Shown: one piece after another, positions 187 through 13,803 of the stretch
Numbering within the stretch: position 1 is the stretch's first letter
Layout: the number at the start of each line of letters is the position of its first letter
From: Lachnospiraceae bacterium
GTDB taxonomy: Bacteria; Bacillota; Clostridia; Lachnospirales; Lachnospiraceae
Length of the DNA stretch: 64,000 bases
Direction of reading: 5' to 3'
Assembly (NCBI GenBank): GCA_017517305.1
Contig: JAFWZV010000015.1
Coordinates: 62,001 to 126,000, forward strand
Notes under the pieces: generated by a model
The model's database searches: none
Seen by the model: only the letters and a program-made list of their open reading frames with translations
Told to the model about the DNA's origin: nothing
Program-made: the position numbers and the translations under genes

Positions 187-510
187 TTAGTTGTAGTAGG
201 TTGCCATTGCTTTCCAAAATTCTTTGCAGGTTTTGTCAAATGATTCTCTGTCTATCTCAGAAGATTGTTTATAACCATGCAAAGATGCATTATGATGCTC
301 TGTAGATGTCAGAATAGCTAATGTACCGTCATTTTCTTGGCCGATATGATGCAACTCATATCTTTTTCCTGTAGTATCAAATGGTGCGTTACCATTCATC
401 ATTAATTCCCTATTTGTTTTCCCATTTGCACTAGGTGCAACATACTTTACATAATATTTCTTTTTACCATTAATACATTCTTTATCATTCCCAATCCAGC
501 ATAAAACTCT
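187..510 (-). pseudogene. Remnant of a polymorphic toxin: LHH-type HNH/Endo VII nuclease C-terminal domain
   Basis: The open frame runs from the stop at 513-511 to the stop at 187. It reads through KYVAPSANGKTNRELM and then RYELHHIGQ, which carries the LHH motif of the HNH/Endonuclease VII toxin superfamily, and a later STEHH. Only the toxin tip is left: there is no delivery or pretoxin domain. The first methionine (402) lies inside the conserved domain start, so a 71-residue product from it would be incomplete. Its 5' part overlaps the 3' end of the upstream HNH gene in another frame, which marks a recombination junction at about 450-510. The CbrC-type immunity gene follows. It is best read as an orphaned toxin tip left when the defence island arrived. 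Translation is uncertain. Confidence 0.66.
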
Positions 511-1073
511 TCATTATCTTTACATTGTTCTTGTAACCCGATTATATTTAACAATAAATAATCCAGTCTATGTAATTCCGAACCCAACCGAATCTTGTCA
601 TAAAAATCTTTAATATACTGATCTTCTTTATATTCATCGTTTATACAAATATTATAATTATCGTCTCTAATAAATGTATTTTTTATTCCCTCTCCATCTG
701 GATATAATTCATCAAAATAATTCTCCTCAATCCAAAAGGAACTTTTGTTATGATTACAATCATGACACGCCAGAATTAAATTTTCAATATATCCCGCATC
801 TTTCTTCGATTTAAACTTTGGTGCCTTTTCATATAAAAAATGGTCTATTTCAAATTCATTTTTCTTTATTAAATCGACAGATACTCCACAATATGCACAT
901 TTCCCATTATATACCTTTAAAAAATCTAACTTGAATTTTTCCGAATTATCACTAATGTAAGTATGCATATCTTGTGCATATGGATGTTCATCTTTTACCA
1001 AAGCTTCGACTTTTTTCTTCTTCTCTTTAACGTCAATTAATACTGGACAATACTTGGTTCTTCTGTAATCCAT
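447..1073 (-). CDS. HNH endonuclease, last gene of a kinase/receiver/HNH cassette
   Basis: This is a 208-residue HNH nuclease. It has a first zinc-binding pair C59/C62 (CAYC), a catalytic D77-H78 (EIDH), N98 in ENLILAC, a second pair C103/C106, and N107 and K110 in CNHNK. It therefore looks catalytically intact. The N-terminal 50 residues are charged and helical and have no recognised domain. The start has a GGAAGG ribosome-binding site 7 bp upstream and follows the receiver gene's stop by 3 bp, so the genes are translationally linked. The likely role is the DNA-cutting effector controlled by the two upstream signalling proteins. The last 20 or so residues overlap an LHH toxin remnant in another frame, so the natural C-terminus may have been altered. 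It could also be a Septu PtuB-like nuclease, but the usual ATPase partner is absent. Confidence 0.78.
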   Translation of the reverse strand: MDYRRTKYCPVLIDVKEKKKKVEALVKDEHPYAQDMHTYISDNSEKFKLDFLKVYNGKCAYCGVSVDLIKKNEFEIDHFLYEKAPKFKSKKDAGYIENLILACHDCNHNKSSFWIEENYFDELYPDGEGIKNTFIRDDNYNICINDEYKEDQYIKDFYDKIRLGSELHRLDYLLLNIIGLQEQCKDNEEFYAGLGMIKNVLMVKRNIM

Positions 1074-1076
1074 ATT

Positions 1077-1670
1077 TTAACCTTCCACTTTCTCTTGCAA
1101 CTCACGAAACATCCTAATCACATCATCAATATCATTTTTAGTTAATTCGTCAAATCTGCCTTGTCCATTTATTGAATTAACTATTTTTTCTACCATTACC
1201 TTTTCCCAACTTGTATTTTTCTCCATTTCGGATGCGATTTTACGCACCTCAAAAATATTTCTTACAGCCTGTTCTAACAACTCTGGTAATTTATCATCAT
1301 AGTACTCTTCTGGGAATTTTCCGCATTTAGGATCATATTTGGAAACTGTTTCGTAATCCTTGTCAACTTCATTTTGTGTTATAACAATAACCTCTATGAA
1401 TGGAAAATACTTTTTTAATATAATTTTGAATTCTTCTCCTGTAAATTTACCGGTCGTAGCATTTCTATTTTCAAACAGTCTAGAATCTATAAATATTATA
1501 TTTGCCGTTTTTACATCTGGATTATTAATTAAACTTTCATAACCTTCATCTGGATTAAATTTAATATCTGAATATTCAAAATTGCAGGTATGACTTTGAT
1601 ACTTGTCTAAATATTTCGCCAAAGCAGGTTCTGGATTGTCATCTATATATATTATTTTCAAAGTAGACAT
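1077..1670 (-). CDS. Response-regulator receiver-domain protein, defence associated
   Basis: This 197-residue protein has a CheY-like receiver fold. The acidic pair is D10/D11 (YIDD), the phospho-acceptor candidate is D62 (FIDSR), the switch residue is T98 (VIVIT) and the lysine is K118. The region from residue 15 to 55 is longer than in ordinary receivers, and the K118 loop reads CGKFPE rather than KP. After residue 125 there is a helical tail with no DNA-binding domain. The start codon shares TAATG with the upstream kinase stop and has an AGGAGG site. It is probably the phosphorylation partner of the upstream protein and passes the signal to the HNH nuclease. Direct contact with either is inference. 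Confidence 0.72.
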   Translation of the reverse strand: MSTLKIIYIDDNPEPALAKYLDKYQSHTCNFEYSDIKFNPDEGYESLINNPDVKTANIIFIDSRLFENRNATTGKFTGEEFKIILKKYFPFIEVIVITQNEVDKDYETVSKYDPKCGKFPEEYYDDKLPELLEQAVRNIFEVRKIASEMEKNTSWEKVMVEKIVNSINGQGRFDELTKNDIDDVIRMFRELQEKVEG

Positions 1671-3805
1671 TATAATTTCCCTCCTATTGTAAATTCAATG
1701 GAAAATCCATCTTCTCCTTCTATTTTTTGAATTTCTCCACCTGACATTATACAGGTATTGTTCACAATCCACATACCCAATCCATGTCCATTTGTTCTTG
1801 TTGTTTCATGCACTTCTAATATTTTTCTAGGATCCGTTTTATACTTATCATCAAGTCCCTTTCCATTGTCACTATACTTAATTTTAAGAAATCCATTCGA
1901 TTCACTTGCTTTAATTGTGATAAGCAATTTTTGTGTATTATCATTTTGCTGTACACTATTTAAAATTAAATTATCCATAATAACTTGTAACATATCTTCC
2001 GAAATCTGATAAATAATATCTTCATCCATCAATATTTCAACAGAAAGCCATGCATAATCTCTTTCCCACACCTGTTTATTAATAGATAATATATCAGCAA
2101 CACTTTGAAATTTCGTTTCAAATTGCTTTTTCTCAACCTCTTCCAGCATTGTGTCCATAAATGTTATTAGTTTCTTTCCAACCTCATCATTATTTTTTAG
2201 CAAATACGGAACATTCTTATATGACTTGCGAGTGTTTTCTATAGAATTAAGTTCTTCCCACATTCCATATTCCTTCAATGCATCTACGATATTGTTATAG
2301 CTTTCAAAAATAGCATTTCTGTCATTCTTCATTTCGTGTGCAATTGAAGATGCCTTCAATCCTGTTGTCGCAAGCACATTTAAAATACGTACATCGTACT
2401 TGTATCTTGCCTCTACAGCTTCTTTATCTTTTTGATACTGTTTTCCTTCCTTTTTATATCCTTTAAGCTCTGCTGCCAACTGTTTTGCTTCATCCTTTGT
2501 AAATTCACTTACTGATGAAGGTTTACTAATCACTCGATCAGATACCGGTGTTGCCTTTTGTTCCTCCTGTTGATTCTTTACATTAATTTTTCTAATAATG
2601 CTCTGTCTGTATCTTTCAAACTCTTTAATTCCAATCAATATAATTTCAACAAATAATTGGTAATATATATTCTCATCTAACCCTTGTCTATTTGCCATAT
2701 CTTGAAGAACTGAATTTTCTCGTTTATCAATCAAAACAAAGCCTGCCATTTGGTTCTCTCTCACACGCCATGCTCCTGTTGGATGCGAAGCTGCTGCTGG
2801 TGATTTTCTTGATCTTTTACCTAATCCAAGCCAGTCTTTCTTTCCTTCATATGAAGATATACTGAACGCATTTCTGTATAATATTACTCCGCTCTCTACA
2901 CTATCCGGAGTATCCAAGTATTTGTACATAAATTTGTCTTTATCTTCATTTGAAGAAGTTAAATTAAAAAAGAAATTTGCCGAAAAATCGCCCAACTCTT
3001 TTATAACAGAATCAATATCACCATCAATTAGCTCTACAAGTTCAGTTCCTTTTAGTTCCTTAATTATATCCGTCTTTATTTCATATTTTTTTATATCAAT
3101 AGCAGGACAGTACTTCAAAGCATCACCTTCAAATTCATCTGAATTTACTATTGTTGTCAAAATACCATCACTGTATTTTAAAACAATATTACTTCTGCAA
3201 TTAATTCCCGCTTGAGCTTCTGGAAAATGTGGCGGAACAACCTTATCATATTCATCAGCAATAATTCTAATCTCCATAGAAGTATCGTGATAAGTTTTCT
3301 TCAAATAATTACGTAAATTTTCTATACGCTTTTTATTCCATTTTTCTCTTAGACCTACTATAGTTATGTCTGTTCCCTTCTCGCGAACAACATCATTTTT
3401 TTCCAAAACAGAAGTATTCCAATCCGTTCTCCATATCACCCCTATTGAATCTGTTTTTTGAGATTTCATACATACGCTTCGCCCTAATCTCGACAACGCA
3501 AACCTTCCAACCCCCTTGGAACCTGCTTGTATTCTCTTTTTATTATTTTCATCAACTATTTCATAATCTTTGCCACTTTTCCCAATATGCATCCAATGCG
3601 CTTTTATATCTTCTTCATCCATTCCAATACCATTATCAATAAACTGTAACTCGTCATTCTTAAATATAATTTTTAGATTTAGTGCATTTGCATCGTATGC
3701 ATTTTTTACTAATTCAAGAATTGCTGCCTCATCCGTAGAAAAATTTTGCACACCTAATAATTCAGCAATTGTGCTATCCTCAATAACATATTTCAATTCT
3801 TCCAT
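1670..3805 (-). CDS. Double GHKL ATPase: MORC/MutL/Hsp90-type N-terminus fused to a histidine-kinase core
   Basis: This 711-residue protein has two GHKL ATPase modules. The N-terminal one is of the Hsp90/MutL/MORC kind, with an N-box at 31-39 (ELVKNAYDA), DNGIGM at 57-62 and GSKGVGRFAL at 95-104. A transducer-like region follows, then a lysine-rich coiled coil at about 440-470. The C-terminal module is a sensor-kinase core with an H-box around H490 (SIAHEMKND), an N-box near 612 (DNLILNS), DNGKGL near 646 and GHGLGMWIV near 673. There are no membrane segments, so it is cytosolic. The ATG at 3805 was chosen over an upstream GTG (3814) because AGGAGG lies 8 bp before it. MORC/MutL-like ATPases are a known feature of restriction loci. 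Here the N-terminal ATPase may sense DNA or infection and the kinase half may phosphorylate the next gene's receiver. Confidence 0.78.
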   Translation of the reverse strand: MEELKYVIEDSTIAELLGVQNFSTDEAAILELVKNAYDANALNLKIIFKNDELQFIDNGIGMDEEDIKAHWMHIGKSGKDYEIVDENNKKRIQAGSKGVGRFALSRLGRSVCMKSQKTDSIGVIWRTDWNTSVLEKNDVVREKGTDITIVGLREKWNKKRIENLRNYLKKTYHDTSMEIRIIADEYDKVVPPHFPEAQAGINCRSNIVLKYSDGILTTIVNSDEFEGDALKYCPAIDIKKYEIKTDIIKELKGTELVELIDGDIDSVIKELGDFSANFFFNLTSSNEDKDKFMYKYLDTPDSVESGVILYRNAFSISSYEGKKDWLGLGKRSRKSPAAASHPTGAWRVRENQMAGFVLIDKRENSVLQDMANRQGLDENIYYQLFVEIILIGIKEFERYRQSIIRKINVKNQQEEQKATPVSDRVISKPSSVSEFTKDEAKQLAAELKGYKKEGKQYQKDKEAVEARYKYDVRILNVLATTGLKASSIAHEMKNDRNAIFESYNNIVDALKEYGMWEELNSIENTRKSYKNVPYLLKNNDEVGKKLITFMDTMLEEVEKKQFETKFQSVADILSINKQVWERDYAWLSVEILMDEDIIYQISEDMLQVIMDNLILNSVQQNDNTQKLLITIKASESNGFLKIKYSDNGKGLDDKYKTDPRKILEVHETTRTNGHGLGMWIVNNTCIMSGGEIQKIEGEDGFSIEFTIGGKL

Positions 3806-3817
3806 AAGTTGCACCTC

Positions 3818-5233
3818 CTAAAACATATAATTTTCAACATCCTTTGACGTAATTCTCACCGATTTACCGCTTATAGGTATACCAACTTTTAAAACATACT
3901 CTTTAAATTCATCACTTCTAAGTATTTCGATTGCTTCTGCCAATGTATATTCATTATTATCTTCCTTTTCCACAATATACATTCCTGCATACGGTATACA
4001 TTCTTGTTCTAACTCATATACATCTACACCATTTGTCACAACCGTTGAAATTAAAAGTTTCTGGCTATTCAAACCACTTAGTGCTTGCGAACGCCCATAC
4101 TCATACCATTTAGCATTATTATCACTTTGTCTTTTATCTAACTCGTCACGAAACTTATTGAGATATGCTGTTGCTTCAGGATATAAACGTTCAAACTCAC
4201 CGTCAGCAAAACGCACCAGTCCATTCTCATCATACGAATACGGAAATATTATTTTCTCATGTTTTTCGTATCTTAATGTCCTCGGTGTCTCGGTACTTCT
4301 AACCACTGCTCTTTCAATAGTATGATTATCACAAACATAACCATTGTCCACTTCGGTATATGCCCCGTCCGGCAATACATATGCTTTATTCAACAATGTT
4401 GCCACAACATGTGACACCTTAAAATAATCTCCAAAACGATGTTGTCCTTCTTCGTTCTCTTCTGTAAAAAACCACTTTTCTTCTAAGCCAGCAATTGGTA
4501 TATCCAGTTTAGTTTCCATACCCATATCCTGATAGTGTAAAATATCCTGTTGACGCTGTTTATCCAACACCATTATAGATGATTTAACTAAGGCCTTATC
4601 AAATATCTTAACTTGTTTGTAATCCTTTATTTTTGAAATATAAGGACTCATAAAAACTCTTAAATTATGCCCATACACAGTCTTATAAATACTACTTGGT
4701 ATAAGATAAGACATCTTTCCATTATTTGCTAATGACTTAATACTTTTCTCTATAAACGCATAGCAATAATCAAATTTCCCTTTAACACATGTCGTAAAAC
4801 TATTTTTAACAAATGTCTGCTCATCCTCTTTCAATTCACTATACGTTATATATGGGGGATTACCTACAATATATTGAAACTTTATTGCGGTATTCCATTT
4901 CAAATAATCGGCATTAAAAACTTTCCAATCAACATTGCCAATATTATTACTCTTCAATACTTCATCTAAATTTTCGATACATTTATCATACTGTTCTTTA
5001 TCAATCTCGATTCCGTATACATCTCTTGCTAATCCGTTTTTTATCTTTGTTCTAGACAATCCGTTTGCACGGCAATCATCAATATACCTTTGAACTACAG
5101 CAACCAGGATATTGCCATCGCCGCAGGAATTCTCTAGTATTTTTTTTCCATATAAATTATGGGTATATCCCACACTATCTAGTAATTCTCTTACATAATT
5201 TTCAGGCGTAAACACCTGGCACTTCTTGTTCAT
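3818..5233 (-). CDS. Eco57I/TaqI-like N6-adenine DNA methyltransferase
   Basis: This 471-residue class I methyltransferase has motif X (QVFTP, 6-10), a divergent SAM-binding motif I ENSCGDGN (34-41, in place of the usual DPACGSG), and catalytic motif IV NPPY at 125-128. The NPPY motif indicates N6-adenine methylation. The C-terminal half, about 200 to 471, resembles the target-recognition region of Eco57I-like enzymes. The ATG at 5233 places MNKKCQVFTP at the family's normal start. A GTG at 5266 would add 11 residues and overlap the upstream gene by 14 bp. It sits between an Mrr-type nuclease and the GHKL cassette. It may protect the host from one of these or mark DNA for them. It is distinct from HsdM, so the locus has two adenine methylases. 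Confidence 0.8.
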   Translation of the reverse strand: MNKKCQVFTPENYVRELLDSVGYTHNLYGKKILENSCGDGNILVAVVQRYIDDCRANGLSRTKIKNGLARDVYGIEIDKEQYDKCIENLDEVLKSNNIGNVDWKVFNADYLKWNTAIKFQYIVGNPPYITYSELKEDEQTFVKNSFTTCVKGKFDYCYAFIEKSIKSLANNGKMSYLIPSSIYKTVYGHNLRVFMSPYISKIKDYKQVKIFDKALVKSSIMVLDKQRQQDILHYQDMGMETKLDIPIAGLEEKWFFTEENEEGQHRFGDYFKVSHVVATLLNKAYVLPDGAYTEVDNGYVCDNHTIERAVVRSTETPRTLRYEKHEKIIFPYSYDENGLVRFADGEFERLYPEATAYLNKFRDELDKRQSDNNAKWYEYGRSQALSGLNSQKLLISTVVTNGVDVYELEQECIPYAGMYIVEKEDNNEYTLAEAIEILRSDEFKEYVLKVGIPISGKSVRITSKDVENYMF

Positions 5234-5252
5234 AGCTATCTCTTCACTTTCT

Positions 5253-6278
5253 CTATTCTTCCTCACTCAATATCCATATCTGCTTGAGTGGTATTTCTGC
5301 CTTAATGGCAGGACTTAACTTCTCGTAATTATCAAACAATTCCTTAATAACATCCGTAGAATCCCAAAGACGAATTTTGAAGAACTGATTACCTTCTTCT
5401 CTTGCAACACTATCTTTAAATCCATTCCACGATACAAGCAAACCATATTCAGCTTGTACATTATTCATCACACCGCCCAATTGATCCAATGTCGGTCTAT
5501 CCACAGGTGCATCTTGCGTCTTTACCTGCACACAAATCTTAGGAGAACCGAATCCCATTTCTCCACCGGAAGCCAACAAATCTTTTCCTCCATCAGCTCC
5601 TTGTTTGCTATGATATACAGTAAATCCTTTAGCCTTCAAAATCTCTTCGATTAAGCTTTCCATTTTATAACCTTTAAACTTCTGGATAATATACTTAGCA
5701 ATAGCATCCTGAATAGCCTCTTCTAAATTGGTTGAAGAATCTGCTTGTGTATCATCTGCTTCTGGAAATACAGAATTTGACACTCCCAGAACCTTCCAAT
5801 CATTTGCTTCCATTGTTTTAATTCTATTTTCGGCATCATTTCTTGTAATTTTACACACAGTCATAAACGCACCGAATGAATACAACATATCTTGGTCAAA
5901 ATTGTTTCTTGGAATATCTTTTGCAAACCAATCGATACTTCTGTAATGGTAGTACGGATTACCATTATTAGCATCATATGTATACTCGCCGGTAACTTTA
6001 CCAATATGAATTGTACTTGTCCGCTTACTTGGCAAAACAATCCAGTCACCGATTTTCATACGATGAGCAATAGGATAAATCTGAGATTCCCAGTTTTTTA
6101 ATGTGTTTATCTTCTCAGAAGGATACAACTCTTGTAATTTCTGCAAATGAGCTGCTCTATCTTTATAATCTTTCAAGTTGATTTTTAAATCATGCCATGT
6201 AAGATAAATCTTATTATCTGTTAAAAACTTTTCCTCGTATTCGCCATTCTTTCCAGCTCTAAATAACCAAATACTCAT
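5253..6278 (-). CDS. Mrr-type restriction endonuclease with N-terminal base-sensing-like domain
   Basis: This 341-residue protein has two parts. Residues 1-150 are rich in aromatic residues and strands (WLFRAG, then GDWIVLP) and resemble the PUA/EVE-like modules found on modification-sensing nucleases. Residues 200-300 form an Mrr_cat restriction domain with D229 and D233 in GADGGKDLL, and Q251-V-K253 as the (D/E/Q)xK motif. The start has GGAGG 7 bp upstream. Mrr enzymes usually cut methylated or otherwise modified DNA. Its position directly before an adenine methylase could instead mean it cuts unmodified sites and is paired with that enzyme. The N-terminal assignment is less certain than the nuclease call. 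Confidence 0.75.
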   Translation of the reverse strand: MSIWLFRAGKNGEYEEKFLTDNKIYLTWHDLKINLKDYKDRAAHLQKLQELYPSEKINTLKNWESQIYPIAHRMKIGDWIVLPSKRTSTIHIGKVTGEYTYDANNGNPYYHYRSIDWFAKDIPRNNFDQDMLYSFGAFMTVCKITRNDAENRIKTMEANDWKVLGVSNSVFPEADDTQADSSTNLEEAIQDAIAKYIIQKFKGYKMESLIEEILKAKGFTVYHSKQGADGGKDLLASGGEMGFGSPKICVQVKTQDAPVDRPTLDQLGGVMNNVQAEYGLLVSWNGFKDSVAREEGNQFFKIRLWDSTDVIKELFDNYEKLSPAIKAEIPLKQIWILSEEE

Positions 6279-6296: not shown

Positions 6297-9200
6297 TTAC
6301 GCCACTTCTTTATACCTAGTAAATATATACTCATAAATTCTCTGTCGATATGTAGAAATACTCAATTCATCATAACTTTCTGGCAATTCTTTCCACAAAG
6401 TATCACGTATCAAATTATCTATTTCAGCTTTTGTCTCCTGCTTATCTGTCCAATGGTCAAGCTCAGCAATCTTGGTCTTTACCTTGTTCAATAATTCCAC
6501 TGCAACTTTCTTAATGGCTTTAATATCTTCCTTCGACAAATTCTCAGAGAACAACATATCATACAAAGATAATTCTTCATCACTTGAAAACCCTTCACGA
6601 ACATAACGTTGTTCTTCTTGACTCATGCTGTTCGCTAAATTCATAAGTTCCACAAAAGTCTTTTCTATGTTGGCTCTATCCTGTTCACTATTATATTCCT
6701 CAATAATTTGACGATAACGCTCATAGTAATCAACTCGGTTAGGATTTGCCTTTAGCATAGAAGCAAGACGTTCCTGTATAAGTTCATCCAATTCCACTAT
6801 CATTAAATTTCTCTTTTTAGCCTTGGCAAACTCTCTCTTTAGCAAATCAAAATCTATTTTACTGATATCAAAACGTTTTGATGCATCACCGCTTGACTGT
6901 TGGTCAACTTGTATATATTCTCCTATGATACCATTAATTTGAACCATCAATTCCGTGTTATCAATATATTTTCTCTTTTTTCTTAATTCCTCACATATTG
7001 CTATGATTGCATCTTTATATGATCTCTCCTTAGCAGAAATATCATTTCTAGCAAGATACTTCATAAGTCGACTCAATTCATTCCCATAAGTCATAAATTG
7101 TTTCTTTGTCTCTCTACTTTCAGAAACAGCATTTGCTCCTTCTTGCAACAATGCAAGTTTAGAAAAGTCCTTAGCTTCAACTAATTCTTTTAAAGAGAAG
7201 TCATAACTTTCAAGAAAAGAATCAGTCACTTCAATTACTTCCACAACCCTTGTAATCAATTCACCCTTATCAACAGTTGGATCCGTTTCTCCACCGTTAT
7301 TTGCCGTATAATCAGCCAGCGCTTTTCTTAAGGCCTTTACGATTCCTATGTAGTCAACAATTAACCCGTTACTCTTTCCCTCTGCAACTCTATTTGCTCT
7401 TGCTATTGTCTGCATTAATGTATGTGCTTTTAATGGTTTATCCAGATACAAACAAGACAAGCACTTTACATCGAAACCAGTAAGCCACATCGCACATACA
7501 AATACGATTCTCAAAGGATTTTCTTTATCCTTAAACTCTTTATCTAACTCTCGTTTTTCTATCTTCATACGATGAGGTGTTATATCAAGATTCCACTTTT
7601 TAAATGTCTGGATTTCATTCTGCTCCTGACTAATAACCACAGCCATTTCAGTTTCCTTCATCCACTTAATCTTTCTATCCAGTTCTTGTGCTTCTTGCTG
7701 TGATGCTGTTTTGCGCTGACTCTCCAATACCTGTATTTCCTGCTCCCAATATTCTTTTACAAAATTATACATACGAACGCAAGTTACCTTATTAAGGCAC
7801 ACAAACATAGCCTTACCACTTGTCCACAAGTCTGAGTAATGCTCTACAAAATCCTTTGCCACAGAACACAAACGTGGTTCTGCTGTCAGCAAATGTATCT
7901 CTTTTGCAAATTCATGCTCAAGCTTTTCTTGCTGTGTTGCATCCAAATCTGCTGCTTCGATTGCATCTAAAATCTTATCCGTAATATCCGGATTCTTGAT
8001 ATCTAATATCTTCTCGCCTCTATTTTCATAATAAAGCGGAACCGTAGCACCATCATCTACCGCTCTCTTAAAATCATATACAGAGATATAGCCACCAAAG
8101 GTACGCTCCGTAATATTATCATTTGAAAGCAACGGCGTTCCCGTAAATCCAATTCTTGCTGCTGTCGGCAACAATGCAACCATATTATCAGCAAACACAC
8201 CATATTGGCTTCTATGTGCCTCATCTGACATAATAATAATATCGTGATCAGGATAAATGGGTTCATCTACCTTTTGGTTAAATTTTTGTATCAATGTAAA
8301 AATAAAACTTGGATTACCTTTTAATTTCTTTATTAAATCACTTCCGCTAGTTGCCATAAACTGTGCCGCTTTTGTCTTTCCAAGCAAACCACAGTTTTCA
8401 AATGTATCACTAATCTGAATATTTAATTCTTCTCTGTCTGTAAGCACAACAATAGTCGGAGAACCAGCAAATTTTCTACGAATCTTCTGTGAAAGAAAGA
8501 CCATAGAATAACTCTTTCCTGAACCTTGTGTATGCCAAAACACACCCAACTTACCATCATTCAGTTTTCTAGCCTCATAGGCTTTTACTGCTTCATTTAC
8601 ACCAAGATACTGATGATTCCTTGCCAAAATTTTTACTGTCTTACCGCCAGAATGATCATACAAAATAAAGTTCTCCAACAAGTCAAGAAAATTTGCTTTA
8701 TTGCAAATACCTCGAAGCATTGTTTCCAATGCAACACTTCCACTTTCCTGCTCATTCAGACGTTTCCACTCATGGAAGAATTCATATTTACTTCCCAAAG
8801 TACCAACTTTTGCCTCCGTACCATTGGAAAGCATTAAAAACGCATTATAATAAAATAAATGTGGAATGGTATCCAAATAATCTGTATAGTTATTAGTATA
8901 TGCGTCCTGCACATCAACAGTATTCTTTTTCAACTCAACAAATAAAAGTGGAATACCATTTACAAAGCCAACAATATCGGTTCGACGGCGGTATAAATCA
9001 CCATGAATCTTTAACTCCTTTATTGCCAAGAAATGATTTCTTTCTTCATCATAAGGATGCTCAAAATCAATGACCATAGCCTTTTTCTCTTCACTCTGAC
9101 CATTAGGTTTCTTTACTGTTACTGGTATACCATCGCGAATCATTGAATACTTCTCTTCATTTATCTGCATAAGTGAAGCTGTAGACATATGATACTCAAA

Positions 9201-9434
9201 TTTCTTCTGTGCCTCTTCCACCTGTGTATCTGTTATCCATGGATTTAAAACACGGAGTGCTTTCTGAAAATAGCGCACCAAAAGAATATCCTTATATGAC
9301 TTTCTTCCAAAGGTGCTATTGTCGCCCAAAACTTCTGTATTATAAGCAAACTCAACCTGCCAGCCAAGTTCCTGCTCAAGGAGGTGCCCTGAACTTTCTT
9401 GTACTAATATGTTTTCTGAATATTCGTAGCTCAT
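6297..9434 (-). CDS. hsdR: Type I restriction enzyme R subunit
   Basis: HsdR is the DNA-translocating and cutting subunit of the type I complex with HsdM and HsdS. The 1045-residue protein has a PD-(D/E)xK nuclease near the N-terminus (D153 and VELKK at 166-170), Walker A TQGSGKS at 302-308, a DEAH box, a TGTPL motif and helicase motif VI QTIARANR. The C-terminal third is helical and probably contacts HsdM. The ATG at 9434 was chosen over an upstream one at 9473 because AAAGGAGG lies 7 bp before it. The length fits the family. No frameshift or lost motif was seen, so it should be active. Confidence 0.93.
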   Translation of the reverse strand: MSYEYSENILVQESSGHLLEQELGWQVEFAYNTEVLGDNSTFGRKSYKDILLVRYFQKALRVLNPWITDTQVEEAQKKFEYHMSTASLMQINEEKYSMIRDGIPVTVKKPNGQSEEKKAMVIDFEHPYDEERNHFLAIKELKIHGDLYRRRTDIVGFVNGIPLLFVELKKNTVDVQDAYTNNYTDYLDTIPHLFYYNAFLMLSNGTEAKVGTLGSKYEFFHEWKRLNEQESGSVALETMLRGICNKANFLDLLENFILYDHSGGKTVKILARNHQYLGVNEAVKAYEARKLNDGKLGVFWHTQGSGKSYSMVFLSQKIRRKFAGSPTIVVLTDREELNIQISDTFENCGLLGKTKAAQFMATSGSDLIKKLKGNPSFIFTLIQKFNQKVDEPIYPDHDIIIMSDEAHRSQYGVFADNMVALLPTAARIGFTGTPLLSNDNITERTFGGYISVYDFKRAVDDGATVPLYYENRGEKILDIKNPDITDKILDAIEAADLDATQQEKLEHEFAKEIHLLTAEPRLCSVAKDFVEHYSDLWTSGKAMFVCLNKVTCVRMYNFVKEYWEQEIQVLESQRKTASQQEAQELDRKIKWMKETEMAVVISQEQNEIQTFKKWNLDITPHRMKIEKRELDKEFKDKENPLRIVFVCAMWLTGFDVKCLSCLYLDKPLKAHTLMQTIARANRVAEGKSNGLIVDYIGIVKALRKALADYTANNGGETDPTVDKGELITRVVEVIEVTDSFLESYDFSLKELVEAKDFSKLALLQEGANAVSESRETKKQFMTYGNELSRLMKYLARNDISAKERSYKDAIIAICEELRKKRKYIDNTELMVQINGIIGEYIQVDQQSSGDASKRFDISKIDFDLLKREFAKAKKRNLMIVELDELIQERLASMLKANPNRVDYYERYRQIIEEYNSEQDRANIEKTFVELMNLANSMSQEEQRYVREGFSSDEELSLYDMLFSENLSKEDIKAIKKVAVELLNKVKTKIAELDHWTDKQETKAEIDNLIRDTLWKELPESYDELSISTYRQRIYEYIFTRYKEVA

Positions 9435-9481
9435 GAAATTTACCTCCTTTTTAATAACATATTTCCATAGCATTCATCTTT

Positions 9482-10723
9482 CTATTCGTTGATTTTTCTC
9501 AAAACATCTTCAACTCTCTTTTTTCTTTCCACATTGTCTATTTCTAATTTTGAAAGCAACCACATCTGGTAGATATCATCATAATAATCTTCGACTTCCT
9601 TAGGAGAAAGAGTACTAATATATGGGTTATCACTATTATTATGCCGAACAAATTTTTGTAACATTTGAAACAGATTACTTGCAAGTGTTTTATTTATTCC
9701 ATTTAACTTGCTTCTCTGAGGTTCAATATCATCAGCAAGGTATTTTAGAATTGTTTTCTTCTTTTGTAAATCACCTTTTGTTTGTTTATGTATAAACGCC
9801 TTGACATCATATGCTAATGTTTCATCAACTAATTCTGCAACAGCAATTACGGTAGGATCTTTATCCACAAAAATCGTTATCTCATCTCTTTTTGCCGCAA
9901 TTAAACCGAGCTCATCCATACACCCTTCTACTGTTCGGTATAACTCATCTTTAAGATATTCTGACTCATCGTCCAAAGATATACTTGCGTATTTCCATAA
10001 ATGATCACACAAAGTGACAACATATTCACAATATGAAATCAATTCCTGCACTGTTGTTGATTCATTCGGTGGGTTAAACTTGAAACCGTATGTATCATTA
10101 AAATCATCTAGACTTAGTGCACGATTCTTGAAACTATCAGGAAAAGATGGAATATTACCATCAATTAGATAAATTAGTGGTGTGACGCATGGTCCAATAT
10201 ACTCTGCCGAATTAAACAAAAACCAAATACGGGCATATTCTCTAGCAACATTGAATTTTCGTCCCTTTATGACATCGTACATGTTTGAACGCACTGCTGA
10301 ACTTACTATTTCCTTATCTTCCTTTTCAGACATATTGTCATTGTTATTAGGTGCTTGAGCATCCGTTGAAAAAAGTTCCTGAATTGTTGCTTCGGCATCC
10401 GGAGCAATTTCAAACAGTAATCCTCGTAACTTTGCCCTCATTGTTTTCAAATTATCTTTAAGAGAATCCACATCTATATACTCATAGGTAAAACCCACAT
10501 CTTTAATATAATTGTACATACTTACACCCCAATTTTTAATTTGGTTTTGATATGTACCATCCAACTCTCGGTGAAATTCCTTCAACTGTTCAAAATCATC
10601 TGTTGTAACCGCTAATTCAATCTTTTTTATATCTGTTAAAATTTTTTTAATTTGACCTTCTTGTTTGCATTGCCTCGGATTTTTAATTCCAGCTAAATCA
10701 TCATAATTTGGTCTTTTCACCAT
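9482..10723 (-). CDS. Unrecognised 413-residue protein inserted between hsdS and hsdR
   Basis: I do not recognise this protein. It has no signal peptide or membrane segment. Residues 1-110 are lysine-rich and helical, followed by a low-complexity stretch at 120-140 (Gln, Pro, Asn, Asp, Glu). The rest looks mostly helical, with some aromatic-rich patches (ARIWFLF, YYDDIYQMW). It starts 3 bp after the HsdS stop and ends about 48 bp before the HsdR start, so it belongs to the type I transcript. Extra genes between hsdS and hsdR are often accessory defence factors such as Rlo or anti-codon-nuclease-like proteins, but none of their motifs is visible here. Confidence 0.72.
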   Translation of the reverse strand: MVKRPNYDDLAGIKNPRQCKQEGQIKKILTDIKKIELAVTTDDFEQLKEFHRELDGTYQNQIKNWGVSMYNYIKDVGFTYEYIDVDSLKDNLKTMRAKLRGLLFEIAPDAEATIQELFSTDAQAPNNNDNMSEKEDKEIVSSAVRSNMYDVIKGRKFNVAREYARIWFLFNSAEYIGPCVTPLIYLIDGNIPSFPDSFKNRALSLDDFNDTYGFKFNPPNESTTVQELISYCEYVVTLCDHLWKYASISLDDESEYLKDELYRTVEGCMDELGLIAAKRDEITIFVDKDPTVIAVAELVDETLAYDVKAFIHKQTKGDLQKKKTILKYLADDIEPQRSKLNGINKTLASNLFQMLQKFVRHNNSDNPYISTLSPKEVEDYYDDIYQMWLLSKLEIDNVERKKRVEDVLRKINE

Positions 10724-10726
10724 ATT

Positions 10727-11926
10727 CTACACCTCAATTTCCCCGCTCATCAGTTTTGGCAATAAACGGTCACGGGCTTGTACAAGTTTATTATTGCTTA
10801 CACTTAACGAATATATCTTTTTAAATATAGGTTCGCAAAAGTTAAAATACGATTTACACAAATCTTCTGTCGGATATAAAACTTCCAAATTTCCGAATTT
10901 TGTTTTATTTACATTAGTCATTGTTGCACCATTGCTACCCACGCCTTCAAGAAGTGCCTTTAAACGTTTCATTGTGGAATACACATAATATAAATCCTGC
11001 TCATTATTTAATATAATAGAATTTATCTGTTGATTTGTTTGACAATGCTCAATTGCTATATTCACAAGACCCACTGTAGCAATACACGAAACCATAATTC
11101 CATTTTTAGGAATGAATTTATTTCTCTGCGTATTAGCTCCCTCTGTAGTAAGAGTAACTTCTGTTGTTATTGGATATACACAACCATGCATATCTGGTAT
11201 CTTTACAAAAGGAATGTTTCCTCCATAATATTGTTCTTTATCGGTAGAAGGTGTCTTCCCTGTAATAATATCACCAAATTCAGAAATTCTTTGTTTCTTC
11301 CACCCCTCCGGCACGCCATCGACAATCGCCACATCTTCATGGCCTGGAAAGCACAAATCCACAAACCATTCTTTGTACAAACGCTGCGCCGTTTCCTCTA
11401 GAAGCTTGATTTGCTTCTGATTATTTTCAATCAAATCATCATAAACAGATAATATACCAACAATTTTATCCTGTATCTCTATAGGGGGGGCCGGAAATTT
11501 TATGGTTGAAAGTTTTTTCCAAGACAAATTATCTTGTGCTGTACCTTGCGATATTTTTTGGCAATCCCGCTGCAAAATATCAAATGCATATTTGACAAAT
11601 TTAACATTTGATACCCCTTCAAATGGAACAAAGCCCATAATACTGTCTGGAAAACACGCATCCATACCCAATATTGCTGTATCAGCAATATTGGCAGCTA
11701 TTGTAATACATAAAGTTCCTTTTTTCCAAAGTTTGCTCTGTTCCAATCCTCGTTCATTATAAGTTTCTGTATATTCTGTCAGATACAACTCTGCCGCCTT
11801 TACATCTGCTGTTTGTACAAAAGGATACTTTCCTCCAAATAACACTTTGTCATTTCTTGGTCGATGTTTCGAGCGACCTCTAGATATATTTCCCAATTTA
11901 TCTAATGTTACATATTCCCAACTCAT
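10727..11926 (-). CDS. hsdS: Type I restriction enzyme specificity (S) subunit
   Basis: HsdS chooses the DNA target for the type I complex. The 399-residue protein has the normal two-fold layout: target-recognition domain 1 (about 1-150), a conserved spacer helix (IKFPAPPIEIQDKIVGILS, then NNQKQIKLLEETAQRLYKEW), target-recognition domain 2 (about 205-350) and a second conserved helix ending DRLLPKLMSGEIEV. The start overlaps the hsdM stop by 4 bp (ATGA). Both halves look intact and no inverted second copy or recombinase lies nearby, so phase-variable shuffling is not indicated. The target site cannot be read from the sequence. Confidence 0.92.
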   Translation of the reverse strand: MSWEYVTLDKLGNISRGRSKHRPRNDKVLFGGKYPFVQTADVKAAELYLTEYTETYNERGLEQSKLWKKGTLCITIAANIADTAILGMDACFPDSIMGFVPFEGVSNVKFVKYAFDILQRDCQKISQGTAQDNLSWKKLSTIKFPAPPIEIQDKIVGILSVYDDLIENNQKQIKLLEETAQRLYKEWFVDLCFPGHEDVAIVDGVPEGWKKQRISEFGDIITGKTPSTDKEQYYGGNIPFVKIPDMHGCVYPITTEVTLTTEGANTQRNKFIPKNGIMVSCIATVGLVNIAIEHCQTNQQINSIILNNEQDLYYVYSTMKRLKALLEGVGSNGATMTNVNKTKFGNLEVLYPTEDLCKSYFNFCEPIFKKIYSLSVSNNKLVQARDRLLPKLMSGEIEV

Positions 11927-13803
11927 AATCCCATCTCCTTCAAATTTTTAGAGATGGTATCCAGCAACTCATTGCTCTCAACTTGTAATGTCAACAACTC
12001 CCTATGAATCTCTGTCATTCTTTCTTCAAAATCAACACCATCATCTTCTACCGGCGCTACTCCAACGTATGCTCCGGGTGTCAATGACCACCCTTTTTCT
12101 TCTATAGTTTCAACATCTGCAATTTTACATAGACCAAGTATATTGTCATACTCACCTTCACTAAATTTACTATAAAGCCAATTTGCCTCTTTTACTACTG
12201 ACAATATTTCATCCAACCATAAAAGATACTCATCCCATTTTATCTGTTCTGCCTTCTTCTTACGATTTTCACAAGCATCAATACACTCTTTCGCATATTT
12301 TCGTTTAGCAACAATATGTTCTTTAAGTAAACACTTCAAATCCCCAAAATCACTATATTGAATTAATATATCATCAAGTTCCTTATCCGTTGATTCACTC
12401 ACATATTTATAAATCCTATCTTTATACTCATTAATCAACTCTTTGTATTTTTCAATTTCACCACGATATAGCCACACAATAGCATTTATATTTTTTAATT
12501 GCCACTCAGACCATTCATTTCGTGTTTTATCAACTTCAGTATAGTAATTTCTTGCATCAATAAATAAAACTTTATTCTTTATATTATCTTTTTTTCCTTT
12601 ATCAATAAACCACAATGAACAAGGAAGGGATTTTTTTGATGTGTAGAAAAATTTGTTTGCAACGCTAATAATCACATCCATATGACCAGTTTTAACAAGG
12701 CTTTCCCGAATATCTTTGTCCTTGTATTGACTATCTGTAGCAGATGCTGCCATAACAAATCCTGCTCTTCCGCCTTCTTTTAAGTAACTATAAAAATATG
12801 ATATCCATAAATAATTTGCGTTACTTACCTCTTTTTTATCATTCACAGATGGCATACCGAAAGGCAAACGACCTGCATTTTCCGCAGATTCAGCCTTTAC
12901 TTTATCCACATTGAATGGTGGATTTGCCATTACATAATCACAACAACCGTTAAGATTATGCGCATCATTATAGAATGTATTGGCTTCATCTCCTGATTTA
13001 ATTTTTCCAGTTAACCCATGTACAGCCATATTCATAAGGCATAACTGTGCATTATATTCCGTTTTTTCCTGACCATAAAAGGTCATTGTTTTATTGGCGT
13101 TCATACCTTTTTGGTTTACAAAATCTCCCGTTTGAACAAACATACCACCAGAACCACAAGCAGGGTCAAGCAGAATACCTGATTTAGGCTCAAGAATATT
13201 CACAATCGTCTTTACCAATGATTTCGGTGTAAAAAATACACCATCATCCGAAGCTACCTGTGGTGCAAACTTATTAAGGAAGAATTCATAAATCTGACCT
13301 ATAACATCCCCACCTACTTCATCGAGCAAATTATTGTTAAATATACGCAACAATTCACCTAAAAGTTCATCAGAAAAATCCATATAACTTTTAGGCAATA
13401 CACCTATCAATTGTTCACTTTGCTGTTCTACAAGCTCCATTGCATTATTTACAACCTCACCCAAACTATTCATAGGTTGTCCTACAACATTCTTAAGTCC
13501 TAATGAAGCTACATTTTCCGGCAAATTTACAAGCCATTCATACTGTGATTCTTTTGGAAGAAATAATGCACTTTTCGCAGCAAAATCACCTGCTTCTACC
13601 GGCATCTGACGACCATTACGCATAGGTCTGTTTTTTAATATTTCTTCCTCAACCATTTTGTATCTGCTATATGCATATCTCAAAAATAGCAATCCCAATA
13701 CTGGCATGCAATATTGGTTAGATGTAAGCTTTGAGCCTGCTCTAAGCAAATCTGCTGACTCCCACAAGTCTGCTTCAAGTTTCTTAATACTCTTGTAATC
13801 CAT
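11923..13803 (-). CDS. hsdM: Type I restriction-modification methyltransferase subunit
   Basis: HsdM is the SAM-dependent N6-adenine methylase of the type I system. The protein has an N-terminal helical HsdM domain (1-160), a VFFTPKSLV segment, motif I DPACGSGG at 213-220 and motif IV NPPF at 294-297. At 626 residues it is about 100 longer than classic HsdM. The extra length is a charged helical region at about 430-560, seen in some Firmicute relatives. It is the first gene of the island. A GAGG-type site lies about 10 bp upstream of the ATG and a strong promoter lies further up. Confidence 0.92.
   Translation of the reverse strand: MDYKSIKKLEADLWESADLLRAGSKLTSNQYCMPVLGLLFLRYAYSRYKMVEEEILKNRPMRNGRQMPVEAGDFAAKSALFLPKESQYEWLVNLPENVASLGLKNVVGQPMNSLGEVVNNAMELVEQQSEQLIGVLPKSYMDFSDELLGELLRIFNNNLLDEVGGDVIGQIYEFFLNKFAPQVASDDGVFFTPKSLVKTIVNILEPKSGILLDPACGSGGMFVQTGDFVNQKGMNANKTMTFYGQEKTEYNAQLCLMNMAVHGLTGKIKSGDEANTFYNDAHNLNGCCDYVMANPPFNVDKVKAESAENAGRLPFGMPSVNDKKEVSNANYLWISYFYSYLKEGGRAGFVMAASATDSQYKDKDIRESLVKTGHMDVIISVANKFFYTSKKSLPCSLWFIDKGKKDNIKNKVLFIDARNYYTEVDKTRNEWSEWQLKNINAIVWLYRGEIEKYKELINEYKDRIYKYVSESTDKELDDILIQYSDFGDLKCLLKEHIVAKRKYAKECIDACENRKKKAEQIKWDEYLLWLDEILSVVKEANWLYSKFSEGEYDNILGLCKIADVETIEEKGWSLTPGAYVGVAPVEDDGVDFEERMTEIHRELLTLQVESNELLDTISKNLKEMGL

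What the first reader, a model, noticed from the sequence alone, without database searches (positions are those of the whole stretch)
447..3805. Double-GHKL kinase / receiver / HNH nuclease cassette in a defence island
Seen: a soluble protein with two GHKL ATPases (MORC/MutL-like plus a full histidine-kinase core with its H-box), a receiver protein with its phospho-Asp, and an intact HNH nuclease. They are joined by TAATG and a 3 bp gap. Known: MORC/MutL-like ATPases occur in restriction loci, and phosphorelay-controlled immunity exists (Detocs), but Detocs uses a different sensor and effector. Inference: infection or DNA state sensed by the first ATPase drives His-Asp transfer that licenses the HNH nuclease.
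Basis: partly seen in the sequence, partly recalled or inferred. Interest (0 to 1): 0.72.

Follow-up and report, generated by a model that had tools for sequence, protein, structure and literature searches.

The report
Four-gene kinase-linked restriction-modification cassette
Next to a DNA-methylating enzyme, this bacterium carries a signalling kinase, its receiver and a DNA-cutting enzyme, and the same four genes travel together in many distant bacteria, so it looks like a DNA-defence system whose cutter may be switched on by a phosphate relay.

Summary
In detail: at 447-3805 (minus strand) lie a soluble kinase with two GHKL ATPase domains, a divergent receiver and an HNH nuclease, joined by TAATG and a 3 bp gap. 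Among 80 related genome loci, kinase-receiver-HNH are contiguous in 66 of the 69 with room to tell, and 63 of those 66 have an Eco57I-type MTase beside them; this window's type I and Mrr genes are not conserved. The kinase His is present in 82 of 82 aligned kinases, the receiver Asp in 84 of 84. Kinase, receiver and HNH co-evolve (distance correlations 0.91-0.96), while the MTase is repeatedly exchanged (0.31-0.35).

A kinase/receiver pair of this design was published in 2021 (HEF_HK/Response_reg_2, mostly beside C5 MTases), but this lineage does not match those profiles and separates from them in a tree; my searches of the held library showed no description of the quartet. Best reading: a restriction-modification system whose HNH nuclease is licensed by His-Asp phosphotransfer. 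The unit is well supported; relay and gating are inferred, and no function was tested. New variant of a known kind.

The parts
3818..5266 (-).
   Evidence: Pfam Eco57I E 1e-21 and N6_Mtase; PADLOC MTase_II E 6e-53; NPPY motif in the translation; an Eco57I-type MTase beside the trio in 63 of 66 loci
1670..3805 (-). Soluble double-GHKL histidine kinase: N-terminal paraMORC/MutL-like ATPase, H-box (H490), C-terminal HATPase_c; ORF opens at 3814, likely start 3805
   Evidence: Pfam; GHKL motifs and H-box conserved; phmmer to PMS2, HtpG and histidine kinases
1077..1670 (-). Divergent stand-alone receiver protein (D10, D11, D62, T98, K111) with a C-terminal tail of about 80 residues and no recognised output domain
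   Evidence: Profile-profile comparison; D62 in 84 of 84; no receiver family in Pfam
447..1073 (-). HNH nuclease (D77, H78, N98; Cys 59, 62, 103, 106), the presumed effector
   Evidence: Pfam HNH E 4e-7; H78 in 74 of 75, D77 and the four Cys in 75 of 75

Best explanation
A four-gene restriction-modification system under two-component control. The adenine MTase marks the host's own sites (inferred from family). The kinase's N-terminal paraMORC/MutL-like ATPase probably clamps or follows DNA and reports unmodified or invading DNA (inferred). That state drives autophosphorylation of H490 by the C-terminal GHKL domain and transfer to D62 of the stand-alone receiver (inferred from complete conservation of the sites), and the receiver, through protein contact rather than transcription since no DNA-binding domain was recognised in it, releases the HNH nuclease to cut foreign DNA (inferred). 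Shown here: the four genes form one conserved unit; the relay and nuclease active sites are kept; kinase, receiver and HNH evolve as one module while the MTase is exchanged.
For: Trio contiguous in 66 of 69 loci with at least 1600 nt downstream of the kinase; median gaps -1 and -8 nt. Eco57I-type MTase beside the trio in 63 of 66. Over 105 complete next-door genes outside the quartet no family recurs in more than 6. H490 82/82, D62 84/84, T/S98 84/84, K/R111 83/84, HNH H78 74/75. Distance correlations over 64 sets: kinase-receiver 0.962, kinase-HNH 0.938, receiver-HNH 0.911; with MTase 0.349, 0.307, 0.309. Quartets also on plasmids and on viral contigs.
Against: No biochemical or phage data. 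Conserved His and Asp could persist for other reasons. The only receiver-HNH fusion (L056) lacks the receiver tail and HNH head and comes from a metagenome contig whose kinase frame is also split, so I give it little weight. In L074 the trio stands without an adjacent MTase, and in L047 and L084 the neighbour is a type I HsdM. PADLOC gave the kinase only two weak type II REase matches (28-30 bits) and the receiver none.
Confidence: 0.5

Rival explanations
1. The GHKL domains and receiver act as an ATP-driven DNA clamp and scaffold that loads the HNH nuclease, as MutL does in mismatch repair, and no phosphate is transferred.
For: The N-terminal GHKL domain carries intact MutL/MORC-type motifs (E31 81/82, DxGxGM, GxKGxGR) and matches MutL/PMS2; Iyer 2008 proposed DNA looping for paraMORCs (PMC2292703, passages).
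Against: H490 (82/82), the kinase N and G boxes, and the receiver phosphorylation residues are conserved, which a scaffold would not need.
Confidence: 0.16
2. The kinase/receiver pair controls when the restriction enzyme or MTase is made or active (for example to avoid self-restriction after horizontal transfer), as the 2021 authors suggested in general terms, rather than licensing each attack.
For: Bellieny-Rabelo 2021 speculates on signalling that controls R-M systems (PMC8011034, discussion read).
Against: The receiver is about 200 aa with no recognised DNA-binding domain and sits between kinase and HNH; kinase, receiver and HNH co-evolve far more tightly with each other than with the MTase.
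Confidence: 0.14
3. The HNH nuclease is a suicide (abortive-infection) effector that damages host DNA after the relay fires; the MTase supplies the state that is monitored rather than protecting from cleavage.
For: Detocs, a defensive two-component system, degrades ATP and can lead to abortive infection (PMC11249213, passages).
Against: A DNA MTase of the restriction type is adjacent in 63 of 66 loci; no second receiver or buffer gene is seen in the conserved unit.
Confidence: 0.12
4. The trio is an accessory of type I R-M systems, as its place beside HsdMSR in this window might suggest.
For: HsdM/S/R and an Mrr protein lie upstream here; HsdM follows the trio in L047 and L084, follows the broken kinase of L068, and lies downstream of the trio in L038, which also has its own MTase.
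Against: An HsdR relative is found in only 4 of 80 loci.
Confidence: 0.04

Closest known systems
HEF_HK / Response_reg_2 two-component-like pair with paraMORC ATPase domain (Bellieny-Rabelo 2021, PMC8011034)
   Same: N-terminal HATPase_c_3, central H-box, C-terminal HATPase_c; soluble kinase; adjacent divergent receiver with Asp, acidic pair, Thr and Lys; next to DNA MTase and R-M genes.
   Different: Window kinase and receiver do not match PF19191/PF19192; 0 of 35 records behind my loci (34 of this family, one the Campylobacter C5 plasmid) have PF19192 over cut-off. Three true PF19192 loci that I examined have a C5 MTase, a kinase-like ORF of 991-1003 aa and a 555-617 aa regulator, and no match to my HNH, receiver or MTase models in the stretch fetched. 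The quartet kinases group apart from them.
paraMORC1 proteins of R-M operons (Iyer 2008, PMC2292703)
   Same: GHKL ATPase in R-M operons, noted there to co-occur with HNH endonucleases.
   Different: The passages that I read (12 of 14 places) describe no kinase core or phosphorelay; 'receiver' does not occur in the text.
Detocs (defensive two-component system)
   Same: A histidine kinase and receiver coupled to an immune effector.
   Different: Detocs has kinase DtcA, a buffer protein DtcB that absorbs phosphate, and response regulator DtcC (PMC11728103 passage); here one receiver, a separate HNH and a DNA MTase.
Type II R-M systems with Eco57I/TaqI-like adenine MTases
   Same: MTase adjacent to a nuclease; MTase distantly like M.TaqI and a 577-aa adenine MTase of known structure, 8cxz and 7lni, which I recall to be CamA.
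   Different: Nuclease accompanied by a conserved kinase and receiver; nuclease and MTase hardly co-evolve.

Membership tests
HEF_HK/Response_reg_2 pair (PF19191/PF19192) | Kinase matches PF19191 and receiver matches PF19192 | tested here: not met
   No match in own genome at E up to 10; window and three to four relatives of each protein scanned with Pfam at E up to 10; 0 of 35 records over the PF19192 cut-off; 1 of 35 over the PF19191 cut-off, in a 392-aa frame on contig C24 of the genome of L076 that I did not examine further. Positive control: 3 of 369 genomes over the PF19192 cut-off, and PF19191 matched both of the kinases beside them that were scanned.
HEF_HK/Response_reg_2 pair (PF19191/PF19192) | Architecture HATPase_c_3 + H-box + HATPase_c with adjacent receiver gene | tested here: met
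HEF_HK/Response_reg_2 pair (PF19191/PF19192) | Frequent C5-cytosine MTase partner | tested here: not met
   Partner is an Eco57I-type adenine MTase in 63 of 66 loci
Two-component system | Conserved H-box His, kinase N/G boxes, receiver Asp, acidic pair, Thr/Ser and Lys | tested here: met
   H490 82/82, D62 84/84, D10 82/83, T/S98 84/84, K/R111 83/84 (14 of these Arg)
Two-component system | Phosphotransfer from kinase to receiver | not testable with these tools
   Needs biochemistry
Receiver fold | Profile relation to canonical receivers | tested here: met
   Distant half 95.5% and E 1e-8; window half linked to it at 92.5%; directly only 46.9%. The fold itself was not predicted.
Type II restriction-modification | Adjacent DNA MTase and endonuclease genes | tested here: met
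   nuclease activity of the HNH is inferred from its motif
Type II restriction-modification | MTase and nuclease act on the same site | not testable with these tools
   Needs methylomes and cleavage assays; weak MTase-HNH co-evolution (0.309) makes this an open question
Detocs | Kinase, buffer protein and response-regulator effector genes | tested here: not met
   One receiver gene and a separate HNH in the conserved unit; definition from a PMC11728103 passage
Septu/retron PtuB HNH | Equivalog-level HNH match with PtuA-type ATPase neighbour | tested here: not met
   Best PADLOC PtuB match 37.5 bits; NCBIfam PtuB 15.6 bits against a cut-off of 150; the neighbour is a GHKL kinase

The most novel reading that the evidence does not exclude
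The kinase-receiver-HNH trio is a specificity-free, phosphorelay-licensed restriction engine that plugs into interchangeable adenine MTases: a paraMORC clamp reads whether DNA carries the partner's mark, and His-Asp phosphotransfer rather than direct site recognition by the nuclease decides when the HNH cuts. This would be a restriction system in which sensing, decision and cutting are split between a two-component pair and a swappable MTase.
Probability: 0.25. Interest if true: 0.85.

Novelty: new variant of a known kind. Interest (0 to 1): 0.62.

Why it matters
If right, bacteria control a DNA-cutting defence enzyme with a two-component phosphorelay, joining two textbook systems that are normally separate. 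It would also give a testable function to bacterial MORC-like ATPases, noted next to restriction genes in 2008, and to the kinase/receiver pair reported in 2021 without a known output. The exchange of MTases under a constant trio makes a sharp question testable: who reads the site, the MTase, the kinase clamp or the HNH?

Tried and rejected
Considered and set aside: that the trio belongs to the type I R-M operon of the window (HsdR relative in 4 of 80 loci by BLASTP within the flanks held, many of them short); that it is a member of PF19191/PF19192; that it is Detocs (no buffer gene in the unit); that phages are its main carriers (2 partial matches in 50,697 phage records; in IMG/VR a single-sequence scan found none; an alignment scan found 101 relatives of which the best 80 were kept, and 13 of these 80 carry kinase, receiver and HNH, 11 of the 13 with a MTase match, 3 of those weak at 21-31 bits).

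Led nowhere: repeats around the cassette show nothing that bears on it; promoter-like sites were at chance (70 against 66.1), terminator-like sites somewhat above it (10 against 5.2, sd 2.5), with none of the ten inside 447-3805. A phylum-wide search at E 1e-40 found only the window's own genome among 398, but only two candidates per genome were scored, so it is a weak measure of rarity. In the relatives search 7 of 145 genomes matched; 5 of them, own included, hold the quartet and two match only in part and have no receiver or HNH beside them.

Counts that I corrected. One search gave an MTase beside 64 of 66 trios. Pfam showed that the hits in L047 and L084 are type I HsdM, and that L065 has an Eco57I-type piece upstream that my distance rule missed because both genes are split there. 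The other 62 score 374 bits or more against my MTase model; in a Pfam scan of 65 MTases (those 62, L047, L084 and L068) 64 match Eco57I and only 3 HsdM_N, namely L047, L084 and L068. Corrected figure: 63 of 66; one of them (L071) lies downstream on the opposite strand. The 66 trios include L056 (receiver and HNH in one frame) and L065, both with a split kinase frame.

Rows dropped before counts: kinase conservation used 81 of 89 collected kinases (650 aa or more) plus the window; receiver conservation 83 of 89 plus the window, 36 of them picked by position and not by similarity, with L005, L056 and two truncated ones included; HNH conservation the 74 of 89 loci with a BLASTP match plus the window. 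The co-evolution test used 63 loci plus the window; L038, L056, L061, L064 and L065 were excluded beforehand, incomplete sets were dropped, near-identical copies were kept, and L047's HsdM was counted as its MTase. The 105 next-door genes are complete frames of 150-1300 aa from trio loci, with L026, L041, L042, L065, L068, L075, L079, L081 and L082 left out.
Full report
What is there. On the minus strand, reading 5' to 3', the window holds HsdM (11923-13803), HsdS (10727-11926), an unassigned 413-aa protein (9482-10723), HsdR (6297-9473), an Mrr-type protein that PADLOC calls PDC-S02 (5253-6278), an Eco57I-type adenine MTase (3818-5266), the double-GHKL kinase (ORF 1670-3814, likely start 3805), the receiver (1077-1670) and the HNH protein (447-1073). 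A 71-aa LHH-nuclease ORF follows at 187-402.

Is it a unit? I aligned nine diverse kinases and scanned a collection of one genome per species (84,980 species) with the one conserved motif that the tool chose; 569 stretches matched, 532 encode relatives, and the best 80 were kept. By record titles they include Bacillota, Pseudomonadota, Spirochaetota, Fusobacteriota, Actinomycetota, Bacteroidota, Campylobacterota and Gastranaerophilales (phylum names are my reading of the titles). In the 69 loci with at least 1600 nt after the kinase, the receiver and HNH follow directly in 66; the three exceptions have a kinase frame that is cut or split, and one of them (L061) still has both genes. At 90% kinase identity the 80 collapse to 70 clusters, with 57 of 60 testable representatives keeping the trio. 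An Eco57I-type MTase is next to 63 of the 66 trios, upstream of the kinase or downstream of the HNH; two more have a type I HsdM there and one (L074) has none. Genes outside the quartet do not recur: over 105 next-door genes the commonest PADLOC family is PbeA (6) and the commonest Pfam domains, helicase domains, occur in 6; an HsdR relative occurs in 4 of 80 loci and the Mrr protein in 1 of 80. The same quartet is annotated on plasmids of Bacteroides finegoldii, Salipiger and Deinococcus, where the receiver is called hypothetical, and my HMMs find it on an unannotated Ensifer plasmid. A Campylobacter plasmid has a related kinase, a longer response regulator and a cytosine MTase instead.

Are the parts intact? 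Among 82 aligned kinases (window included) the H-box His is 82 of 82, the Glu of the first GHKL domain's ELVKN motif 81 of 82, and the glycine motifs of both GHKL domains are near invariant. Among 84 receivers D62 is 84 of 84, T/S98 84 and K/R111 83 of 84; D10 is 82 of 83. Among 75 HNH proteins H78 is 74 and D77 and four Cys are 75 of 75. The receivers of 36 loci were chosen by position alone, so their Asp was not selected for. The receiver family is divergent: no receiver-family match for the window's, and weak Response_reg scores for two of the three quartet plasmid receivers scanned; profile-profile comparison ties it to canonical receivers through its distant half.

Who evolves with whom? 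Over 64 complete sets, pairwise distances of kinase, receiver and HNH correlate at 0.91-0.96, against 0.31-0.35 with the MTase (none of 2000 permutations reached any of these values). MTases fall into five types at 33% identity, L047's HsdM being one; the type changes 11 times on the kinase tree against a minimum of 4 and a shuffled mean of 19.8, so MTases are partly inherited and partly exchanged. Of 24 kinase pairs at 70% identity or more, 4 have different MTase types. The clearest case is Clostridium zeae (L021) against Acetobacterium paludosum (L022): kinase 79%, receiver 83%, HNH 72%, but MTase 20% identical, in the same upstream place. Conversely the window's MTase type occurs with kinases only 27-29% identical to the window's while its C-terminal half stays 38-47% identical. 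So the nuclease module is not tied to one MTase sequence. Either the exchanged MTases mark the same site, or the trio takes its specificity from its partner; sequence cannot decide.

How it most likely works. A MTase beside a conserved nuclease points to restriction-modification. The kinase and receiver, with the phosphotransfer residues kept and with tight co-evolution with the HNH but not the MTase, point to control of the nuclease. No output domain was recognised in the receiver, so contact with the HNH is more likely than transcription; one metagenome locus fuses receiver and HNH in frame (L056), but without the receiver tail and HNH head and in a contig whose kinase frame is split, so it may be a deletion or an assembly product. 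The signal, probably DNA state read by the MutL/MORC-like N-terminal domain, is inference. Six loci have a cut or split kinase that does not simply run off the contig: the MTase is split in L061 and L065, intact in L056, not found in L063 and L064 (L064's contig ends inside the receiver), and a HsdM follows in L068; I draw no conclusion from them.

Compared with what is known. Bellieny-Rabelo and colleagues described in 2021 a kinase/receiver pair with the same architecture near R-M genes, most often C5 MTases, and linked it to paraMORC ATPases (PMC8011034; abstract, introduction, results and discussion read, methods and supplements not). That paper pre-empts the idea of a paraMORC-type two-component pair in R-M loci and mentions HNH domains among neighbours. 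The window's proteins do not match its profiles. Of 35 records behind my loci (34 of this family, one the Campylobacter plasmid) none has PF19192 over cut-off and one has PF19191 over cut-off in a frame that I did not examine. The profiles do work on real members: three genomes of 369 in the class of the Rodentibacter genome, whose loci are a C5 MTase, an ORF of 991-1003 aa that matches my kinase model, and a regulator of 555-617 aa. In a tree of 86 kinases the 68 taken from quartet loci (L047 with its HsdM among them) fall in one group (support 0.999, midpoint-rooted) that excludes four C5-linked kinases and ten other viral ones and contains four further viral kinases with receiver and HNH beside them. 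Iyer 2008 noted paraMORC1 with HNH in R-M operons (PMC2292703, passages). Detocs has a different gene set (passages). In ten paper searches none of the listings or passages that I saw describes the quartet; the library lacks most subscription papers and all preprints, and I read only one paper at length.

Verdict. Observation confirmed and extended; interpretation partly supported. A real, widespread four-gene system for which I found no experimental study; new variant of a known kind. The phosphorelay-licensed nuclease is the most likely mechanism but has not been shown.

Noticed in passing
window 187-402 (-): A 71-aa ORF with an LHH-nuclease domain (PF14411, E 1e-21) lies directly downstream of the HNH gene; not examined in relatives.
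   Followed up: no
window 9482-10723 (-): A 413-aa protein between HsdS and HsdR matches nothing convincing in Pfam, NCBIfam or PADLOC; possibly an unrecognised accessory of this type I system.
   Followed up: no
L056 5214-6278: In-frame fusion of receiver and HNH in a Lachnospiraceae metagenome contig, missing the receiver's last part and the HNH's first part; the kinase before it is split between two frames.
   Followed up: partly
L047 10438-13253; L084 3995-5071; L068 8025-9620: Type I HsdM (in L047 also HsdS) stands where relatives of these loci have an Eco57I-type MTase; in L068 the kinase is cut short and receiver and HNH are missing.
   Followed up: partly
L160, L161, L162 and L005: The C5-linked class has long regulators whose C-terminal part shares an SPACD/TPSCD-like motif, seen by eye in L161, L162 and the Campylobacter plasmid L005; its output domain is unassigned.
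   Followed up: no
L177, L178, L181, L184, L187 (IMG/VR contigs): A further class on viral contigs: adenine-type MTase match, kinase of 773-797 aa and a weakly receiver-like protein of 382-410 aa without an HNH match.
   Followed up: no
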